DNA of 53,343 nt from the NCBI GenBank assembly GCA_947072665.1, contig CAMTIW010000002.1, forward strand, positions 1 through 53,343. Reading direction: 5' to 3'. Positions 8,237 through 53,249 of the stretch are shown here, in pieces. The notes beneath the pieces were generated by a model. That model was not told the origin of the DNA. It saw only the letters and a list, made by a program, of their open reading frames with translations, and did no database searches. The stretch is from an uncultured Fusobacteriaceae bacterium (GTDB lineage: Bacteria; Fusobacteriota; Fusobacteriia; Fusobacteriales; Fusobacteriaceae). A program made the position numbers and the translations under genes. Each line of letters begins with the position of its first letter. Positions within the stretch are counted from its first letter, which is position 1.

Positions 8237-8283
8237 AAAATAAAGCGATAGAAAAATTTTTAATTTTTCTATCGCTTTATTTT
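8237..8283 (-). terminator. oppA operon terminator, 21-bp perfect stem
   Basis: A perfect 21-bp inverted repeat (8237-8257 and 8263-8283) with a 5-base loop and a core of AAGCGATAG/CTATCGCTT. Its outer part is A on one side and T on the other, giving a T-rich 3' end on the minus strand just after the oppA stop. The symmetry would also stop plus-strand transcripts. Confidence 0.85.
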
Positions 8284-43845: not shown

Positions 43846-45399
43846 ATGAAAAAAACAGCAAAGATATTAGGAATATTAGGAATAATTTTAGCTTTTCAGG
43901 CTTGTTCAAAAATTGAAGTAGCAAAGGAAAAAACAAAGGATTTTGAATTGGTTGTAGTTCATTTAAATGATGTACATGGAAGAGCAGAAGAGGGAAAATA
44001 TGACGGAGTTGGTTATGCCAAAGTAGCGACTATAATAGAAAATCTAAAAAAAGATCCAGTTAATAAAAATATTATGTTTTTAGATGCAGGAGATACAATG
44101 CATGGGACAACATTTGCAACCCTTGAAAGAGGAGCCTCAATTGCCAAAGTATTAGATAAAATGAACCTAGAAGCAATGGCAGTAGGAAATCATGATTTTA
44201 ATTATGGAAAGAATAGAACTTTAGAATTAAATAAAATGAGTAAGTTTGAAATGTTATCAGCAAATACAATAAATGCAGATGGAAGTAATTTTATAACACC
44301 TTATATAATAAGAGAAATAGATGGAGTTAAGGTTGGTATTTTTGGATTGACTACACCTGAAACACATTATAAAACTAACCCTAAAAACGTAGAAGGATTA
44401 ACATTTGAAAGTCCTGTTCCCATAGCTAAAAAAATGGTTAAAGAGTTAAAAGAGCAGGGTGCTGAGTTTATAATAGCTTTAACTCATTTGGGAATTGATG
44501 AATCAACAAAGCCTGAATTTAGAAGTACAGCTTTAGCAGAGGCTATACCAGAGATCAATCTTATTGTAGATGGACACAGTCATACTGCTTTAAAAGAAAA
44601 AATGGTAGTAAATGGTGTTACATTGATACAAACAGGAGAATATAGTAAAAATTTAGGAATAGCAAAAATTGATTTTGATGAATTATCAAAAGGAACAGAT
44701 GCTATTGATTATAGATTAATGTCTAAAAAAGAAATTCTAGATAACGGAATAGAACCTAATAAAGAAATTGCTAACTTCATATCTGATATAAAAAAAGAAC
44801 AAAATAAAATAACCGAAGTAAAGATAGGGAAAACAGAGGTTAAACTTGTTGGAGAAAGAGAGTTTGTAAGAGCAGGAGAAACAAATTTATCAAATTTAAT
44901 AGCAGATGCAATGATGTGGAAAAGTGGAGCAGACATATCAATTACAAATGGAGGTGGGATAAGAGCTTCCATTAATCAAGGAGATATAACTGTTGGAGAT
45001 GTAATAAGTGTTTTACCTTTTGGAAATTATGTTATAACGAAAGAACTGACAGGAAAAGATATAAAAGATGCCTTAGAACATGGTTTTAGAGATCTTCCTA
45101 ATGTAGCAGGTTCTTTAGCTCAAATTGGTGGTATGACTGTAAATGTAGACATAACTCAACCTGCAGGAAATAGAGTATCAAATATTAAACTTAAAAATGG
45201 GAAAAAATTTAATTTAAACTCTAAATATCTAGTAGCTACAAATGATTTTATGGCAATTGGTGGAGATGATTATTTAATGTTTAAAGGTAGAAAAGAGGTT
45301 GCAAATTTCCCAGGATTAGATGAGATTTTAATTGATTATATAAAAGTAAAAGGAATAACTGCTAAAAAAGCAGATGGAAGAGTAAAGATAAAGAGATAA
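43846..45399 (+). CDS. 5'-nucleotidase/UshA-family lipoprotein
   Basis: A 517-aa secreted nucleotidase. The N-terminus (GIILAFQACSK) is a likely lipoprotein signal with Cys20. The metallophosphatase domain carries VVHLNDVHGRAEEG, LDAGDTMHGT, VGNHDFNYG, ALTHLGIDES and VDGHSHTAL, the dimetal ligands in order. The C-terminal substrate domain has ETNLSNLIADAMMW, SITNGGGIRASINQGDIT and LPFGNYV. It should hydrolyse 5'-nucleotides or nucleotide sugars outside the inner membrane to feed nucleoside uptake. ATG 43846 has a GGGGG ribosome site. It is the first of two genes; the second encodes an FMN-binding domain. Confidence 0.9.
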   Translation: MKKTAKILGILGIILAFQACSKIEVAKEKTKDFELVVVHLNDVHGRAEEGKYDGVGYAKVATIIENLKKDPVNKNIMFLDAGDTMHGTTFATLERGASIAKVLDKMNLEAMAVGNHDFNYGKNRTLELNKMSKFEMLSANTINADGSNFITPYIIREIDGVKVGIFGLTTPETHYKTNPKNVEGLTFESPVPIAKKMVKELKEQGAEFIIALTHLGIDESTKPEFRSTALAEAIPEINLIVDGHSHTALKEKMVVNGVTLIQTGEYSKNLGIAKIDFDELSKGTDAIDYRLMSKKEILDNGIEPNKEIANFISDIKKEQNKITEVKIGKTEVKLVGEREFVRAGETNLSNLIADAMMWKSGADISITNGGGIRASINQGDITVGDVISVLPFGNYVITKELTGKDIKDALEHGFRDLPNVAGSLAQIGGMTVNVDITQPAGNRVSNIKLKNGKKFNLNSKYLVATNDFMAIGGDDYLMFKGRKEVANFPGLDEILIDYIKVKGITAKKADGRVKIKR

Positions 45400-45417: not shown

Positions 45418-45783
45418 TTGAATAATTGTGATAAAATCAGAAAGATTTGTGTTTTAATATTTATATTTACTGGAATAGTTCTTTTAGGAGCAGAGAAATT
45501 AAAAAAAGAAGTAGTTTACACTGGAGTAGGAGAAGGATTCTATGAAGATGTGAACGTTAGTTTAACTGTTAATAAAAATAGAAAAGGGGAGCTAAGAATA
45601 GAAAAACTAAATATAGAGACAAAAGATACTCCAGCTATCGGAGGAACAGCAGCAGAAAAAATGAGAGAAGAAATTCTATCTAAACAAAATATAGATGAAG
45701 TGGATATTATTTCAGGAGCTACAATTACCTCAGAAGGAGTAATTGAGGCTGTAAAAGATGCATTGTCTAAAATAAGTGAATAA
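45418..45783 (+). CDS. exported FMN-binding domain protein
   Basis: A 121-aa protein with an N-terminal membrane or signal segment (KICVLIFIFTGIVLLGAE) and an FMN-binding domain (PF04205 type) as in NqrC/RnfG-type and extracellular electron-transfer flavoproteins. The motif DIISGATITSEGV gives the SGAT sequence whose Thr is the usual covalent FMN site added by ApbE; VVYTGVGEGFYEDVNVSLTV starts the domain. The start is TTG 45418 with AGGAGG six bases upstream. It follows the nucleotidase by 18 bp and precedes a strong terminator. The redox partner is unknown. Confidence 0.83.
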   Translation: MNNCDKIRKICVLIFIFTGIVLLGAEKLKKEVVYTGVGEGFYEDVNVSLTVNKNRKGELRIEKLNIETKDTPAIGGTAAEKMREEILSKQNIDEVDIISGATITSEGVIEAVKDALSKISE

Positions 45784-45792
45784 ATTTAATAA

Positions 45793-45830
45793 AAAATCCT
45801 CTTTGAGATATTACTCTCAAAGAGGATTTT
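45793..45830. terminator. bidirectional terminator, 16-bp perfect stem
   Basis: AAAATCCTCTTTGAGA paired perfectly with TCTCAAAGAGGATTTT around a six-base loop, between two convergent genes. It ends the FMN-binding gene and the second nucleotidase gene. Confidence 0.92.
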
Positions 45831-45834
45831 AATA

Positions 45835-47616
45835 TTATTTTATTTTTTTTAAATCTTCAACAGTGATTGATTTTACATTATTTGTTCTTTGATCACTAGA
45901 TTTTGGGATAGTTATTTTCCCTTCAGCAACTAATTTTGCTACTTGTTCATGAAGTTCAGGATTCCATTTATAACCAGTAATTTTCCAATTATTAGAGGTT
46001 TCAGGAGTTATAACTCCCCCTTTAACTGTTTGAATATATTCTTTTATAAGTTCTCTAATTCTTCCATTATCTCCCATAGTCTCACCTAGATCAACAACAA
46101 GTTCAATTTCGTTAGGTTTAAAAAGACCACCATTTTCAGCTAAGAAAGTTGTTTTTCCTCTGTAATCATTGATTGCAACAACGAATGAATCACTATCTTT
46201 AACAGGAGTCCCATCTATTTTTTTCAAATTTTCAATTCTTTGTCCTGCAGGTTTTGAAATATTTATATCATAAGTAACTCCAGAAAACATATCATAGTTA
46301 TATCCTCTAATATTTTCATTGAAAGAGATAGTTAAATCTCCAGGTTTAAATTGATTATAAAAAGTTGCTGACCACTCCATATATTTTTTTAATTGAGCTC
46401 CTGTTAATCTATATGCTCTTAAAGTATTATCATATTTATAAATTAATGCAACATCAGATTTTTTGATAGGACCTTCATGCATATTTGCATCACTTCTAAA
46501 TGCAGCAACAGTAGAAACATCAGCTTTGGTATAATACGTTTGTACTTCGTTAATAAAATCAATCATAGGAGTAGGCTCTATTTGAGTTGTAGGAATACCT
46601 TCTATTTCATCATTTTTAACAAAATTTCCACCAGTTAATTCTCCTATAACTATCATAGAATCAGAAATAGCTTCTTTATGGAAAGGAGTAAGTTTTTTTA
46701 CTAATTCCTTGTTAGGCTCAATATTCTTAAGTGGAAGATTTTCAGCTACAACATCTTTATCTCTATTTAAAACTACCCATTTATTATTAACTCGAGTTAG
46801 AGTAACATCAACTTTTGCTATATATTCACTCCATTTTCCTGGCTCTATAAGAACAGCTCCTGTTTTAGCACGTTCATTTTTAAGAGCATGTTCATGGCCT
46901 GAAAAGGCAACTAAAACATCAGGATTAGTCTCTACGATTTCTCTTGTAGAATCACCATTTCCATATTCAGGATCCAGTGGCATGTGAGCAGCAACTACTA
47001 TAATATCAGCTTGTTTTTTTAATTCTGGAATTAATTTTTTAACTTCTTCCACAGGATTCGTAGCTATATATCCTTTTAAATTCTCAGAATCCCATTTCAT
47101 TATATGAGGAGTAACAACTCCTATAACAGCTATTTTAACTCCTTGTTTTTCATAAATTTTATAAGGGGTAAATACTCTTTTGTTATCTTTATAAAGATTT
47201 GCTAAAAGAACATCACCTTTAAAACTTTTTATAATATGATCTAAAGTTTTCATTCCAAAATTAAATTCATGGTTTCCTAAAATAAAAGCATCATATTTAA
47301 TTTCGTTCATAGCTAAAATAATAGGAGAAACTTCTTTTTTTAAAAAAAGTTCATGTGAATTATCTTGAATTGTATCTCCCGTATCCAAAAGTAATGTATT
47401 AGGATTTTCTTTTCTAAGTTGTTCAACTATTGTAGCTACTTGAACAGTAGAACCCTTTTTGTTTTCTGATGCAGTAGAATATTCATATGGCATAAACTTA
47501 CCATGCATATCACTAGTTTGAAGCAATTGTATCTTAATTGTTTCTACTCCTAAAAGAATAGTATTGATAGTAATTAAAAAAATAAAAAGTAAAATTTTGT
47601 TTAAATATTTTTTCAT
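45835..47616 (-). CDS. bifunctional 2',3'-cyclic-nucleotide phosphodiesterase/3'-nucleotidase-like (CpdB/YfkN-type)
   Basis: A 593-aa secreted metallophosphatase with a plain signal peptide (ending near LLGVE). Metal-site motifs: LLQTSDMHGKFMPYEY, LLLDTGDTIQDN, ILGNHEFNFGM, VAAHMPLDPEYGNGD and SGHEHALK. The C-terminal 5'-nucleotidase domain has FRSDANMHEGPIKKSD and a Tyr pair region YKYDNTLRAYRLTG, typical of CpdB rather than UshA. It should act on 2',3'-cyclic or 3'-nucleotides in the periplasm. ATG 47616 has a GGGGAGGA ribosome site. It faces the UshA-like operon across a shared terminator. Confidence 0.88.
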   Translation of the reverse strand: MKKYLNKILLFIFLITINTILLGVETIKIQLLQTSDMHGKFMPYEYSTASENKKGSTVQVATIVEQLRKENPNTLLLDTGDTIQDNSHELFLKKEVSPIILAMNEIKYDAFILGNHEFNFGMKTLDHIIKSFKGDVLLANLYKDNKRVFTPYKIYEKQGVKIAVIGVVTPHIMKWDSENLKGYIATNPVEEVKKLIPELKKQADIIVVAAHMPLDPEYGNGDSTREIVETNPDVLVAFSGHEHALKNERAKTGAVLIEPGKWSEYIAKVDVTLTRVNNKWVVLNRDKDVVAENLPLKNIEPNKELVKKLTPFHKEAISDSMIVIGELTGGNFVKNDEIEGIPTTQIEPTPMIDFINEVQTYYTKADVSTVAAFRSDANMHEGPIKKSDVALIYKYDNTLRAYRLTGAQLKKYMEWSATFYNQFKPGDLTISFNENIRGYNYDMFSGVTYDINISKPAGQRIENLKKIDGTPVKDSDSFVVAINDYRGKTTFLAENGGLFKPNEIELVVDLGETMGDNGRIRELIKEYIQTVKGGVITPETSNNWKITGYKWNPELHEQVAKLVAEGKITIPKSSDQRTNNVKSITVEDLKKIK

Positions 47617-47676
47617 TAAAAATCCTCCCCAAAGATTTAATTTATATTTAGTCTAAAAAACTTGACTATTAGAACA

Positions 47677-47705
47677 ATTATTACATAAAAAGAAAAAAAA
47701 GTCAA
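47677..47705 (-). promoter_or_regulatory. promoter of the CpdB-like gene
   Basis: On the minus strand: TTGACT (47705-47700), a 17-base spacer and AATAAT (47682-47677) with a TG just upstream. The assignment is plausible but the region is A/T-rich. Confidence 0.5.
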
Positions 47706-47742
47706 AAATTAAGATATGTATAAATTATAAAAATAAATTATA

Positions 47743-47771
47743 TTGTTTTTTTTTTAATAAAATGTGATAAT
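47743..47771 (+). promoter_or_regulatory. promoter upstream of the mfd leader hairpin
   Basis: TTGTTT (47743-47748), a 17-base spacer and GATAAT (47766-47771) with an extended -10 TG-t (47763-47765). Transcription would start near 47778. Confidence 0.55.
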
Positions 47772-47813
47772 AGCAGTAAGAAAATCATTGTGTTGTAAAA
47801 AAATAATTATTAA

Positions 47814-47850
47814 CTCTCTAAAATATTTTTTAGGGAGAATTTTTATTTTT
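47814..47850 (+). terminator. terminator-like hairpin ahead of mfd
   Basis: A 10-bp stem (CTCTCTAAAA with TTTTAGGGAG, one G-T pair), a 4-base loop and a T-rich tail AATTTTTATTTTT. No plus-strand gene reads into it, so it either ends a short RNA begun near 47778 or attenuates mfd. Confidence 0.7.
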
Positions 47851-47856
47851 AAATAT

Positions 47857-47865
47857 TGCTAGAAT
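47857..47865 (+). promoter_or_regulatory. possible mfd extended -10 promoter
   Basis: TGCTAGAAT (extended TG-c-TAGAAT) just after the hairpin, with only a weak -35. It would give mfd its own short leader of about 20 bases. Confidence 0.4.
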
Positions 47866-47891
47866 ATGTTTGTTGGGAGGGAGAATAAAAG

Positions 47892-50873
47892 ATGTTTGAA
47901 AGAGTAAAAATAGAAAGCAATATTTTATATAGAGGTGAAGTACCTTTTTTACTAAATAAATCTGAAAAAAATATAGTTTATCTATGCTCATCAAAAAAAA
48001 ATATGAATGATTATTATTGGGTATTAAAAGATTTCTATAAGGGCAAAATTATAAAATCTCATGATGGAACAGATGAGGACTATATAAATTTTAATTATTC
48101 CATAATGGAATCTTTAAATAAAAATGAAAAGTTTATAGTTCTTGTAACTTTGGAATTTTTTTTAAAGGAGTTTAAATATTCTGGTAATAGAGTTGTATTG
48201 GAAAAAGGGAAGCAAATAGATTTAAAAAATTTAATAATTAAATTTCAAGAAAATGGTTATAAAAAAAATTACCTTATAGAGAAAAGAATGGATTTTTCTT
48301 TGCGAGGAAATATTTTAGATTTTTTTCCAATAAATGGTGAATTTCCAATTAGAGTAGAACTCTATGACAATGTAGTAGAGAGATTGGTTTATTTTGATAT
48401 TGAAACTCAAAGAACAGTTGAAAAAAAAGATAAAATAGATATGTATATGGACAATAATAAAAAAGAAATTTCAAATTTTATGGAAATTTTTAAAGATGTA
48501 AAAAAAGATAAATTTCCTATTTGTTATCTAGAAAATAAAGAGATTTTAGAATATAAATTAGAAAAATTAATATTTGATAATTATAAAAATCAAGATACTG
48601 TTAAAAATCAATTTCGAATAGGAATCCAAAGTTTTATTGAAATAAATAATAAAAGATTTTTAGAAGAAGAGATAAGTAAATATAAAAATTATGAAAATTT
48701 AAAAGAACTATCCCAAAAAAAAGAAATAATAATTTTTAGTGATGAAGAGAAGAGATATACGGAAATATTTAAAAATTATTCAAATATACAAGTAAATAAA
48801 TATCCTCTTTATGAAGGTTTTGAAAATAATTCTATTTTATATTTAAGTGATAGAGAATTAAAGGGAGTAAGAGTTAGAAGAGAGAAAAAGCAGAAAATAG
48901 AAATAAAACATCATGATATATCTCAAATAAAAGAAGGGGATTATATAATTCATGAAAATTTTGGGGTAGGAATATACATAGGATTGAAGCTTATAAACAA
49001 TAATGAGTATTTAATTATTAAATATGCTGATGAAGATAGACTATATGTTCCCATGGGAAATTTAGATAGAATAGAACGTTTTCAAGTAGAACCGGGAAAT
49101 GAACCAGAGGTTTATAGGCTAGGAAGAAAAGGATTTAGAAAAAAAAGAGAAAAATTAAAAGATGAAATGCTAAAATTTGCTAAAGAAATTGTAGAAATAC
49201 AAGCTAAACGACTTTTAAATAGAGGTTTTTCCTTTGAAAGAGACAGTCTTTGGCAAGAAGAGTTTGAAGATGGGTTTCCTTATACTTTAACAAAAGATCA
49301 GAGTAAAGCAGTAGATGATGTAAAAAGAGATATGGAAAATAATAAAGTTATGGATAGAATTATTTGTGGAGATGTAGGATGTGGGAAAACAGAAGTGGCA
49401 ATAAGAGCTGCATTTAAAGCTGTACAAGACGGGAAACAAGTGGTACTTATGGTTCCTACTACAATATTAGCTCAACAACATTATGAACGTTTTAAAGAAA
49501 GATTGAAAAATTTTCCTTTTGTTGTAGACTTATTAAGTAGACTAAAAAATGATAGAGAGCAGAAAGAATGTATAAAGAATATAGAAAAAGGTGGAATCGA
49601 TATTATTATTGGAACACATAAAATACTGTCTAAAGACATTAAATTTAAAGATTTAGGATTAGTTATTATAGATGAAGAACAAAAATTTGGAGTAAAAGCT
49701 AAAGAAAAATTGAAGTACCTGAAAAATAATGTGGATATGCTAACTCTTACAGCGACTCCAATTCCTAGAACTTTAAATTTAGCTCTACTAGGAATAAGGG
49801 ATATATCTATAATAGAAAGTTTACCAGAGAATAGAGTTCCTATTCAAGATTTTTTCATAGAAAATAATAAGGAAGAAATAAGAATTGCTATTATGAAGGA
49901 GTTTGCAAGGGAAGGGCAAACTTTTTATATATATAATTCTGTAAAAAGTATGGAAAGAAAATTGAAAGAGTTAAGAGATATTGTTCCATCATTTATAAAA
50001 ATATCTTCGATTCATGGACAAATGTTACCACACGATATAAGAAATACACTGCATGAATTTGAAAATGGTGAAATAGATGTTCTTTTAGCCACAACAATTA
50101 TTGAAAATGGAATAGATGTGGAGAATGCTAATACTATGCTAATAGAAGGAATAGATAAATTGGGACTTTCTCAAATGTATCAGTTAAGAGGTAGGATAGG
50201 ACGTGGTTCTGAGAGAGGATATTGTTATATTTTAGTTGATAAGGAAAAAGATTTAAAAGCTAAATCTAAAATGAGAGAAGAGTCAATGAGACAACTTTCA
50301 GATTTAGGAAAAGGAACTGGATTCCATCTTTCTTTAGAAGATATGAGAATAAGAGGTGCTGGAGAAGTTTTAGGAGATAAGCAACATGGAGCTTTAGAGG
50401 TTTTAGGATACGGTCTATATTTAAAACTTATTCAAGAAGAAGTAAGTAAATTAAAGGGTGAATATGTTGAAAAAATAGAGGGGTTTGAATTAGAACTATT
50501 AGTACCTAGATATATACCTGATTCTTATATTGAAAAAGAAGAGAAGATAGTAATTTATAAAAGAACTTCAGAAATATCAAAAATTCAAGATATTTTAGAT
50601 TTAAAAGAAGAGTTAATAGATAGATTTGGAGAGTTACCTCTAGAAACTATTTCTTATCTAAGAGGTGAAAAAATAAAAATATTAGCTATGTCAAAAAGAA
50701 TAGTCTCAATAATAGAAAAAGAAACTTGCTCATATTTTAAATTTTATAAAGATGAAGTTAATTTTGAAAAAATAGTAGAGTTAATAAAAACTGAAAAAGC
50801 TAAATATTTAAGCAATGAAAATACATTGTGTTTCAATGGAACAATAGAAGAATTTTTAACTTATTATTTATAA
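47892..50873 (+). CDS. mfd: transcription-repair coupling factor
   Basis: A 993-aa Mfd translocase that removes stalled RNA polymerase and recruits UvrA. In order: a UvrB-homologous N-terminal part with LRGNILDFFPINGEFPIRVE; an RNA polymerase interaction domain at residues 350-400 (GDYIIHENFGVGIYIGLK); the RecG-like motor with Walker A GDVGCGKTEVAIRAAF near residue 495, the DEEQ box near 593, TLTATPIPRTLNLALLGIRD and QMYQLRGRIGRGSERGY; and a TRCF C-terminal domain. It is about 150-180 residues shorter than E. coli or Bacillus Mfd, with the loss mostly in the N-terminal modules. ATG 47892 has a GGGAGGGAG ribosome site. It is followed by mazG at 23 bp. Confidence 0.95.
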   Translation: MFERVKIESNILYRGEVPFLLNKSEKNIVYLCSSKKNMNDYYWVLKDFYKGKIIKSHDGTDEDYINFNYSIMESLNKNEKFIVLVTLEFFLKEFKYSGNRVVLEKGKQIDLKNLIIKFQENGYKKNYLIEKRMDFSLRGNILDFFPINGEFPIRVELYDNVVERLVYFDIETQRTVEKKDKIDMYMDNNKKEISNFMEIFKDVKKDKFPICYLENKEILEYKLEKLIFDNYKNQDTVKNQFRIGIQSFIEINNKRFLEEEISKYKNYENLKELSQKKEIIIFSDEEKRYTEIFKNYSNIQVNKYPLYEGFENNSILYLSDRELKGVRVRREKKQKIEIKHHDISQIKEGDYIIHENFGVGIYIGLKLINNNEYLIIKYADEDRLYVPMGNLDRIERFQVEPGNEPEVYRLGRKGFRKKREKLKDEMLKFAKEIVEIQAKRLLNRGFSFERDSLWQEEFEDGFPYTLTKDQSKAVDDVKRDMENNKVMDRIICGDVGCGKTEVAIRAAFKAVQDGKQVVLMVPTTILAQQHYERFKERLKNFPFVVDLLSRLKNDREQKECIKNIEKGGIDIIIGTHKILSKDIKFKDLGLVIIDEEQKFGVKAKEKLKYLKNNVDMLTLTATPIPRTLNLALLGIRDISIIESLPENRVPIQDFFIENNKEEIRIAIMKEFAREGQTFYIYNSVKSMERKLKELRDIVPSFIKISSIHGQMLPHDIRNTLHEFENGEIDVLLATTIIENGIDVENANTMLIEGIDKLGLSQMYQLRGRIGRGSERGYCYILVDKEKDLKAKSKMREESMRQLSDLGKGTGFHLSLEDMRIRGAGEVLGDKQHGALEVLGYGLYLKLIQEEVSKLKGEYVEKIEGFELELLVPRYIPDSYIEKEEKIVIYKRTSEISKIQDILDLKEELIDRFGELPLETISYLRGEKIKILAMSKRIVSIIEKETCSYFKFYKDEVNFEKIVELIKTEKAKYLSNENTLCFNGTIEEFLTYYL

Positions 50874-52872: not shown

Positions 52873-53187
52873 ATGAAAATTACGGACATTAGAGTAAGAG
52901 TTATAAAATCTTCTGAAAAAGAATTTGAGACTGAATTAAAATTAAAAGCTTATGCTGATATTACTTTTGAAGAAAGCTTTGTAGTTCATGGATTGAAGAT
53001 AATTGATGGACAAAAAGGTATGTTTGTGGCTATGCCTTCAAGAAAAATGCCCAATGGGGAGTTTAAAGATGTAGCACACCCAATTAAGTTAGAATTAAGA
53101 GGAGAAATAACAAGAACTGTAATTGAAAAATATTATGAAATTCAAGATGTAAAAGAAATTAAAAAAGAAGAATATATAACAGAATAA
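52873..53187 (+). CDS. spoVG: SpoVG family regulator
   Basis: A 104-aa SpoVG protein. MKITDIRVRVIKSSEKEFET, then VVHGLKIIDGQKGMFVAMPS, RKMPNGEFKDVAHPI and a helical C-terminus make up the conserved 85-residue core. SpoVG proteins bind DNA or RNA and act as global regulators in non-sporulating bacteria as well as in Bacillus septation. No sporulation gene accompanies it here. ATG 52873 has a GGGGAAGG ribosome site. It follows ispE by 33 bp and ends in a strong terminator, so it may share the mfd-mazG-rqcP-ispE transcript. Confidence 0.95.
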   Translation: MKITDIRVRVIKSSEKEFETELKLKAYADITFEESFVVHGLKIIDGQKGMFVAMPSRKMPNGEFKDVAHPIKLELRGEITRTVIEKYYEIQDVKEIKKEEYITE

Positions 53188-53219
53188 AATAATCCCACCT
53201 AAATAGGTGGGATTATTTT
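53186..53219 (+). terminator. terminator after spoVG
   Basis: A perfect 15-bp stem (AAAATAATCCCACCT with AGGTGGGATTATTTT) with a four-base loop, beginning inside the spoVG stop codon. Confidence 0.92.
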
Positions 53220-53249
53220 ATAAAATTTTTATAATATTAAGAAAAAAAA

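What the first reader, a model, noticed from the sequence alone, without database searches (positions are those of the whole stretch)
47743..47850. Possible ~70-nt small RNA or attenuator upstream of mfd
A promoter (TTGTTT-17-TG-t-GATAAT) is followed about 70 bases later by a terminator-type hairpin with a T-rich tail, although no plus-strand gene lies between. A separate extended -10 for mfd follows the hairpin. The unit could be a stand-alone sRNA or an attenuated mfd leader.
Basis: seen in the sequence. Interest (0 to 1): 0.5.

Follow-up and report, generated by a model that had tools for sequence, protein, structure and literature searches.

The report
Early terminator upstream of mfd
In an uncultured relative of Fusobacterium, the DNA just before the repair gene mfd carries a genuine-looking stop signal for RNA synthesis behind a plausible promoter, so it probably makes a tiny RNA, but the signal was not seen in the related genomes examined and no function is shown.

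Summary
The 275-bp gap between a minus-strand 5'-nucleotidase gene and plus-strand mfd holds an extended -10 (P1, TGTGATAAT), a plus-strand terminator-type hairpin about 36 nt after P1's predicted start, and a second extended -10 (P2, TGCTAGAAT) close to mfd. The hairpin is not chance: 1 of 1000 shuffles of the gap gives one as stable. It folds well only as plus-strand RNA (-15.1 against -7.9 kcal/mol). In 1.17 Mb of this genome only 4 such hairpins lie in 84 divergent gaps; one follows a tRNA gene, one is a SAM riboswitch terminator. P1 is weaker: its -35 matches 3 of 6, 461 of 2000 shuffles hold such a -10, and the same bases read as an extended -10 on the other strand.

Most likely P1 starts a transcript of about 70 nt that mostly stops at the hairpin, mfd being made from P2 or by read-through. 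No antiterminator, aptamer, leader peptide or Rfam match was found, so a self-contained attenuator is unlikely. The hairpin is not conserved: 43 of 43 other mfd upstream regions lack it, including a same-genus genome with the same neighbour. The arrangement resembles FoxJ of F. nucleatum. Ordinary kind; modest interest.

The parts
47743..47748 (+). -35-like hexamer of P1 (TTGTTT, 3 of 6)
   Evidence: weak by itself, inside a T-run
47763..47771 (+). extended -10 of P1 (TGTGATAAT, 1 mismatch); its reverse reads TGCTATTAT (47775-47767, minus strand), also an extended -10 with 1 mismatch
47778..47848 (+). predicted short RNA of about 70 nt (ends inferred from P1 spacing and the T-tail)
   Evidence: inference; no transcript data
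47814..47837 (+). terminator-type hairpin, 10 pairs, loop 4, -9.8 kcal/mol
47799..47850 (+). extended hairpin in which the upstream A-tract pairs with the downstream T-tail, -15.1 kcal/mol on the plus strand
47857..47865 (+). extended -10 of P2 (TGCTAGAAT), probable mfd promoter; would give a 5' UTR of only about 20 nt
47875..47883 (+). Shine-Dalgarno-like GGGAGGGAG of mfd
   Evidence: read from the sequence
47892..50873 (+). mfd, transcription-repair coupling factor (TRCF, CarD_TRCF_RID, UvrB_inter, DEAD domains)
47677..47705 (-). divergent promoter of the 5'-nucleotidase gene: TTGACT-17-AATAAT with TG; equivalent bases kept in same-genus genome G002
45835..47616 (-). divergent neighbour, 5'-nucleotidase family protein (Metallophos and 5_nucleotid_C)

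Best explanation
A short early-terminated transcription unit in front of mfd. RNA polymerase starts at P1 (about 47778), makes roughly 36 nt of unstructured leader and then the hairpin, and mostly stops in the T-tail near 47848, leaving an RNA of about 70 nt. mfd is transcribed mainly from P2 downstream of the hairpin, with P1 adding only read-through. Shown: the hairpin, its strand preference and its excess over chance, and the presence of both -10 elements. Inferred: that P1 is active, that termination occurs, and how mfd is supplied. Whether the short RNA does anything is open; a by-product that keeps P1 transcription out of mfd is enough to explain it.
For: Hairpin beyond chance (1 of 1000 shuffles) and plus-strand specific, because a G-U pair on the plus strand becomes an A-C mismatch on the minus strand. 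In this genome such hairpins concentrate at gene ends: in 453 kb, of 105 with -8 kcal/mol or better, 29 lie in convergent gaps and 26 after co-directional genes, 2 in divergent gaps. In 1.17 Mb, 4 lie in 84 divergent gaps (threshold -7): this one, one behind a tRNA gene, one SAM riboswitch terminator of a metK-like gene, and one in front of a purine permease. So terminators inside divergent gaps here tend to end real short transcripts. A plus-strand start within the gap is the simplest source: the convergent junction upstream (45783/45835) has a strong two-way terminator of -21.3 kcal/mol. Extended -10s are 3.3 times enriched in divergent gaps. P2-like -10s lie 30-70 nt before mfd in several relatives (L004, L012, L013, L017, L025). 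FoxJ precedent in the same phylum.
Against: P1 has a 3 of 6 -35 and could be a minus-strand -10 instead. The core hairpin is weak for this genome (5 of 56 gene-end terminators are weaker than -9.8) and its T-run begins after two A. No conservation: 43 of 43 other mfd upstream regions scanned lack this hairpin (18 of them have a different terminator, that of a co-directional upstream gene), and P1, hairpin and P2 find no counterpart in the alignment with the two same-genus genomes. No Rfam match. No RNA data.
Confidence: 0.47

Rival explanations
1. The hairpin is a working or leftover terminator that has nothing to do with P1: a relic of an earlier co-directional gene, or a barrier that stops stray plus-strand (antisense) transcription from entering mfd. 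P1 is then a chance match or a minus-strand element.
For: In relatives with a co-directional upstream gene, 18 of 33 have a terminator in the gap before mfd; in L013 the order terminator then TGGTATAAT then mfd has nearly the same spacing. 461 of 2000 shuffles have a P1-like -10 by chance. The hairpin is isolated to this genome.
Against: G001 and G002, the two same-genus genomes, already have a divergent neighbour. The pth-mscS pair, next block upstream of mfd in G001, sits elsewhere in this genome with its own terminator. The junction before the 5'-nucleotidase is already closed by a strong terminator.
Confidence: 0.28
2. A true attenuator: mfd is made mainly from P1 through the hairpin, and a signal (protein, trans RNA, or ribosome) decides read-through.
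For: P2 would leave a 5' UTR of only about 20 nt with the Shine-Dalgarno about 3 nt from the start (read), shorter than the 39-nt median reported for F. nucleatum, so P2 may not be the main promoter. One of the other three divergent-gap terminators is a SAM riboswitch. Trans-RNA control of terminators is proposed in F. nucleatum.
Against: No competing fold: with either hairpin arm kept free the best fold is -2.3 or -2.7 against -15.1 kcal/mol. Only about 36 nt precede the hairpin. No Rfam match. The only plus-strand ORF across it is a 32-codon frame whose GTG lies inside P1, with no ribosome site seen.
Confidence: 0.12
3. A trans-acting sRNA with its own targets, like FoxJ.
For: Same order of start, stop, second start as foxJ-ylmH; short U-tailed RNA.
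Against: No sequence relative in 60 other family genomes beyond scattered AT-rich pieces; FoxJ is reported as strongly conserved in sequence. Targets not tested.
Confidence: 0.08
4. A DNA palindrome bound by a regulator of mfd or of the 5'-nucleotidase.
For: An inverted repeat lies between divergent promoters and just upstream of P2.
Against: The repeat is complete only with a G-U pair, which helps RNA but breaks DNA symmetry; a T-tail follows; no second copy in the genome with up to 3 mismatches.
Confidence: 0.05

Closest known systems
FoxJ sRNA upstream of ylmH, Fusobacterium nucleatum (PMC11005410)
   Same: Same phylum; short RNA once taken for a 5' UTR; promoter, internal terminator, then a second promoter for the following gene
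   Different: FoxJ is about 156 nt, driven by sigma-E, conserved in sequence across species and seen on Northern blots; here about 70 nt, housekeeping-type -10, not conserved, no RNA data; different gene
5' UTR-derived short RNAs made by early termination, such as IspZ of E. coli (PMC7815308)
   Same: Short RNA (60 and 81 nt for IspZ) likely ending at an intrinsic terminator in a leader
   Different: Function as sRNA sponge shown there; none known here; mfd is not mentioned in that main text
Rli51-mpl of Listeria monocytogenes (PMC11394854)
   Same: Leader that ends early and releases an sRNA
   Different: Rli51 has a predicted antiterminator and a trans RNA partner; no antiterminator found here
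SAM riboswitch terminator of the metK-like gene in the same genome (L039:18769-18900)
   Same: Terminator hairpin with T-tail in a divergent gap just before a gene
   Different: Has a full aptamer (Rfam RF00162, 64.5 bits); the mfd leader has room for none after P1

Membership tests
Intrinsic transcription terminator | G+C-bearing hairpin followed at once by a T-tract | tested here: met
   weak core and two A before the T-run
Intrinsic transcription terminator | RNA 3' ends map to the T-tract | not testable with these tools
   no RNA data
Independent bacterial sRNA gene | own promoter and own terminator, no coding frame | tested here: inconclusive
   terminator firm, promoter P1 weak and ambiguous; no credible ORF
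Independent bacterial sRNA gene | conservation of sequence or structure in relatives | tested here: not met
Independent bacterial sRNA gene | discrete RNA and targets | not testable with these tools
   needs Northern blot and target assays
Riboswitch or self-contained attenuator | mutually exclusive antiterminator fold | tested here: not met
   alternatives -2.3 and -2.7 against -15.1 kcal/mol
Riboswitch or self-contained attenuator | match to a described aptamer family | tested here: not met
   no Rfam match in the gap at gathering score; the below-threshold hits have E of 1.2 and above
FoxJ | synteny between der and ylmH and sequence conservation | tested here: not met
   the locus is mfd with a divergent 5'-nucleotidase; a direct sequence comparison with FoxJ was not made

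The most novel reading that the evidence does not exclude
mfd senses its own product: RNA polymerase that pauses or stalls at the weak hairpin just upstream of P2 is a substrate for Mfd, so the amount of Mfd would set how often that polymerase is pushed on or removed, and hence mfd expression. That Mfd acts preferentially at structured RNA is recalled from the literature (a 2021 B. subtilis study, not seen here); no call tests the loop.
Probability: 0.03. Interest if true: 0.6.

Novelty: new member of a known kind. Interest (0 to 1): 0.2.

Why it matters
If a short RNA is really made here, it adds one more early-terminated leader to a phylum in which few regulatory RNAs are mapped, and it would link termination to a gene whose product acts on stalled RNA polymerase. 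As the evidence stands it is a single-genome feature without shown function.

Tried and rejected
Rfam at gathering score over the window and at E up to 10 over the gap: only a tRNA at the window end and chance hits. Unsupervised motif search on divergent gaps converged on the reverse complement of the Shine-Dalgarno sequence, not on a promoter, and was dropped; a fixed extended -10 count replaced it. DNA similarity in the own genome gave one AT-rich chance hit (L002, read); in the family genomes only scattered AT-rich pieces. The first print of relatives' upstream regions ignored strand and was redone. Relic of the pth-mscS terminator was tested and rejected; a relic of some other gene is not excluded. 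Leader peptide: only a 32-codon frame starting inside P1. The scan of genome contigs with Mfd returned 2 loci, one on a contig of the same length as that of G001, so it added only a name. Papers: two searches naming mfd with leader or small-RNA terms showed no paper on an mfd leader RNA; one search found 0 papers holding Fusobacterium, mfd, small RNA and terminator together; one search's 12 listed papers all show 0 occurrences of 'mfd gene'. sRNA target prediction was not tried.

Full report
What is there. The window lies in contig C2 of an unnamed draft genome of 2,382,696 bases in 228 contigs; the closest named relative found is an uncultured Fusobacteriaceae bacterium (L034, 63% identity in Mfd). 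Between a minus-strand 5'-nucleotidase gene (45835-47616) and mfd (47892-50873, plus strand) is a 275-bp gap.

Is it more than chance? The hairpin is. It is the only terminator-like site in 47000-48500. Shuffling the gap 1000 times with dinucleotide content kept gave one plus-strand hairpin of the same or better stability. The stretch 47793-47851 folds at -15.1 kcal/mol as plus-strand RNA (z -4.45) but at -7.9 as minus-strand RNA (z -2.35), since the G-U pair of the plus strand is an A-C mismatch on the other. P1 is less sure. Its -35 matches 3 of 6 and sits in a T-run, 461 of 2000 shuffles hold a comparable -10, and the same bases read backwards as TGCTATTAT, another extended -10. As a class extended -10s are enriched in this genome's divergent gaps, 43 against 13.1 expected in 32 gaps, so by that ratio about two in three are real (inference).

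Setting in the genome. In 453,343 bases, 157 terminator-like hairpins were found, 105 with -8 kcal/mol or better; of these 29 lay in convergent gaps, 26 after a co-directional gene, 18 antisense in co-directional gaps, 25 in coding frames (either strand), 5 at edges and 2 in divergent gaps. Extending to 1,168,053 bases (about half the genome), 84 divergent gaps of 18,919 bases held 4 hairpins of -7 or better. L091:4251 follows a tRNA gene, which my ORF-only gene calls had missed; L039:18876 is the terminator of a SAM riboswitch (RF00162, 64.5 bits) before a gene that I read as metK; L117:1643 lies before a purine permease (Xan_ur_permease) with no Rfam match. The mfd hairpin is the fourth. Its core is weak by local standards: 5 of 56 gene-end terminators are weaker than -9.8.

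What feeds it? The upstream convergent junction at 45783/45835 is closed by a two-way hairpin of -21.3 kcal/mol, so regular plus-strand read-through from there is unlikely; a start within the gap is the simplest source. P1 is the best placed candidate. P2 lies 32 nt before mfd; several relatives have an extended -10 at a similar place (L012 and L013 at -40, L025 at -37, L017 at -34, L004 at -68; in all 10 of 30 regions including the window have one within 90 nt). Start positions in relatives were set from alignment ends and can be off by some codons. With P2 the mfd leader would be only about 20 nt, so a share of mfd transcription through the hairpin from P1 is not excluded.

Conservation. Of 61 genomes I looked at 44 mfd upstream regions including the window; 17 genomes were not examined. 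By rough ORF calls the neighbour is co-directional in 33 (18 with a terminator in the gap, presumably that of the upstream gene), divergent in 10 (one with a terminator: the window), and undetermined in 1 (short contig end). The same-genus genome G002 has a divergent 5'-nucleotidase too (48% identity to the window's over 390 residues), and the minus-strand promoter of that gene is recognisable in the alignment (TTGACT, spacer, TG..ATAAT), whereas P1, the hairpin and P2 are not. The corresponding leaders of G002 and G001 fold no better than shuffles (z 1.02 and 0.04). The hairpin occurs once in the own genome with up to 3 mismatches. In the family genomes (61 including the own) the 133-base stretch matched only in scattered AT-rich pieces outside its own place.

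Mechanism. With either arm of the hairpin held unpaired, the best alternative fold is -2.3 or -2.7 kcal/mol against -15.1, and the nascent RNA before the right arm folds at -0.4: there is no built-in switch. About 36 nt precede the hairpin, no Rfam family matches, and the only plus-strand frame across it begins inside P1. Constitutive or externally modulated early termination is therefore favoured over a riboswitch. The relic reading was tested in one form: in G001 pth and mscS lie just upstream of mfd beyond an inverted antiporter gene, but in this genome pth-mscS is on another contig and keeps its own terminator-like hairpin.

Known relatives in kind. In F. nucleatum the ylmH 5' UTR was found to hold a strong internal stop followed by a weak second start, defining the sRNA FoxJ (PMC11005410; I read the outline with abstract, sections 5 and 6, and search passages). 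The same paper reports a pronounced -10 box with a weaker -35 box and a 39-nt median 5' UTR, and its main text does not mention mfd. E. coli and Listeria give further examples of early-terminated leaders (PMC7815308, passages; PMC11394854, outline and abstract). So the kind is known; this would be one more, unproven, member.

Verdict. Real hairpin, plausible short transcription unit, not conserved, no shown function. Interest 0.2.

Noticed in passing
L117:1630-1740 (minus strand; own genome contig C42): Leader of a purine permease gene (Xan_ur_permease) with a terminator hairpin and a second stem upstream, fold z -2.72, no Rfam match at gathering score; DNA matches in family genomes are short pieces only. 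Possible undescribed attenuator.
   Followed up: partly
L039:18769-18900: SAM riboswitch (RF00162) with terminator before a gene read as metK, in a divergent gap.
   Followed up: yes
L056:5260-5400 (minus strand, G002): Tandem duplication of nearly 60 bases over the mfd ribosome site and start, so that a four-codon frame precedes the real start.
   Followed up: no
window 45793-45830: Strong two-way terminator (-21.3 kcal/mol) shared by convergent genes; similar two-way hairpins at 8239-8281 and 53184-53221.
   Followed up: no
window 43846-45399 and 45835-47616: Two 5'-nucleotidase-like genes close together facing each other across a small gene of 121 codons (the first was named by eye from its sequence; only the second was searched).
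   Followed up: no
G045:C1:2304070-2308914 and G050:C1:2028450-2031025: mfd appears broken into two frames in two genomes of another family of the order.
   Followed up: no
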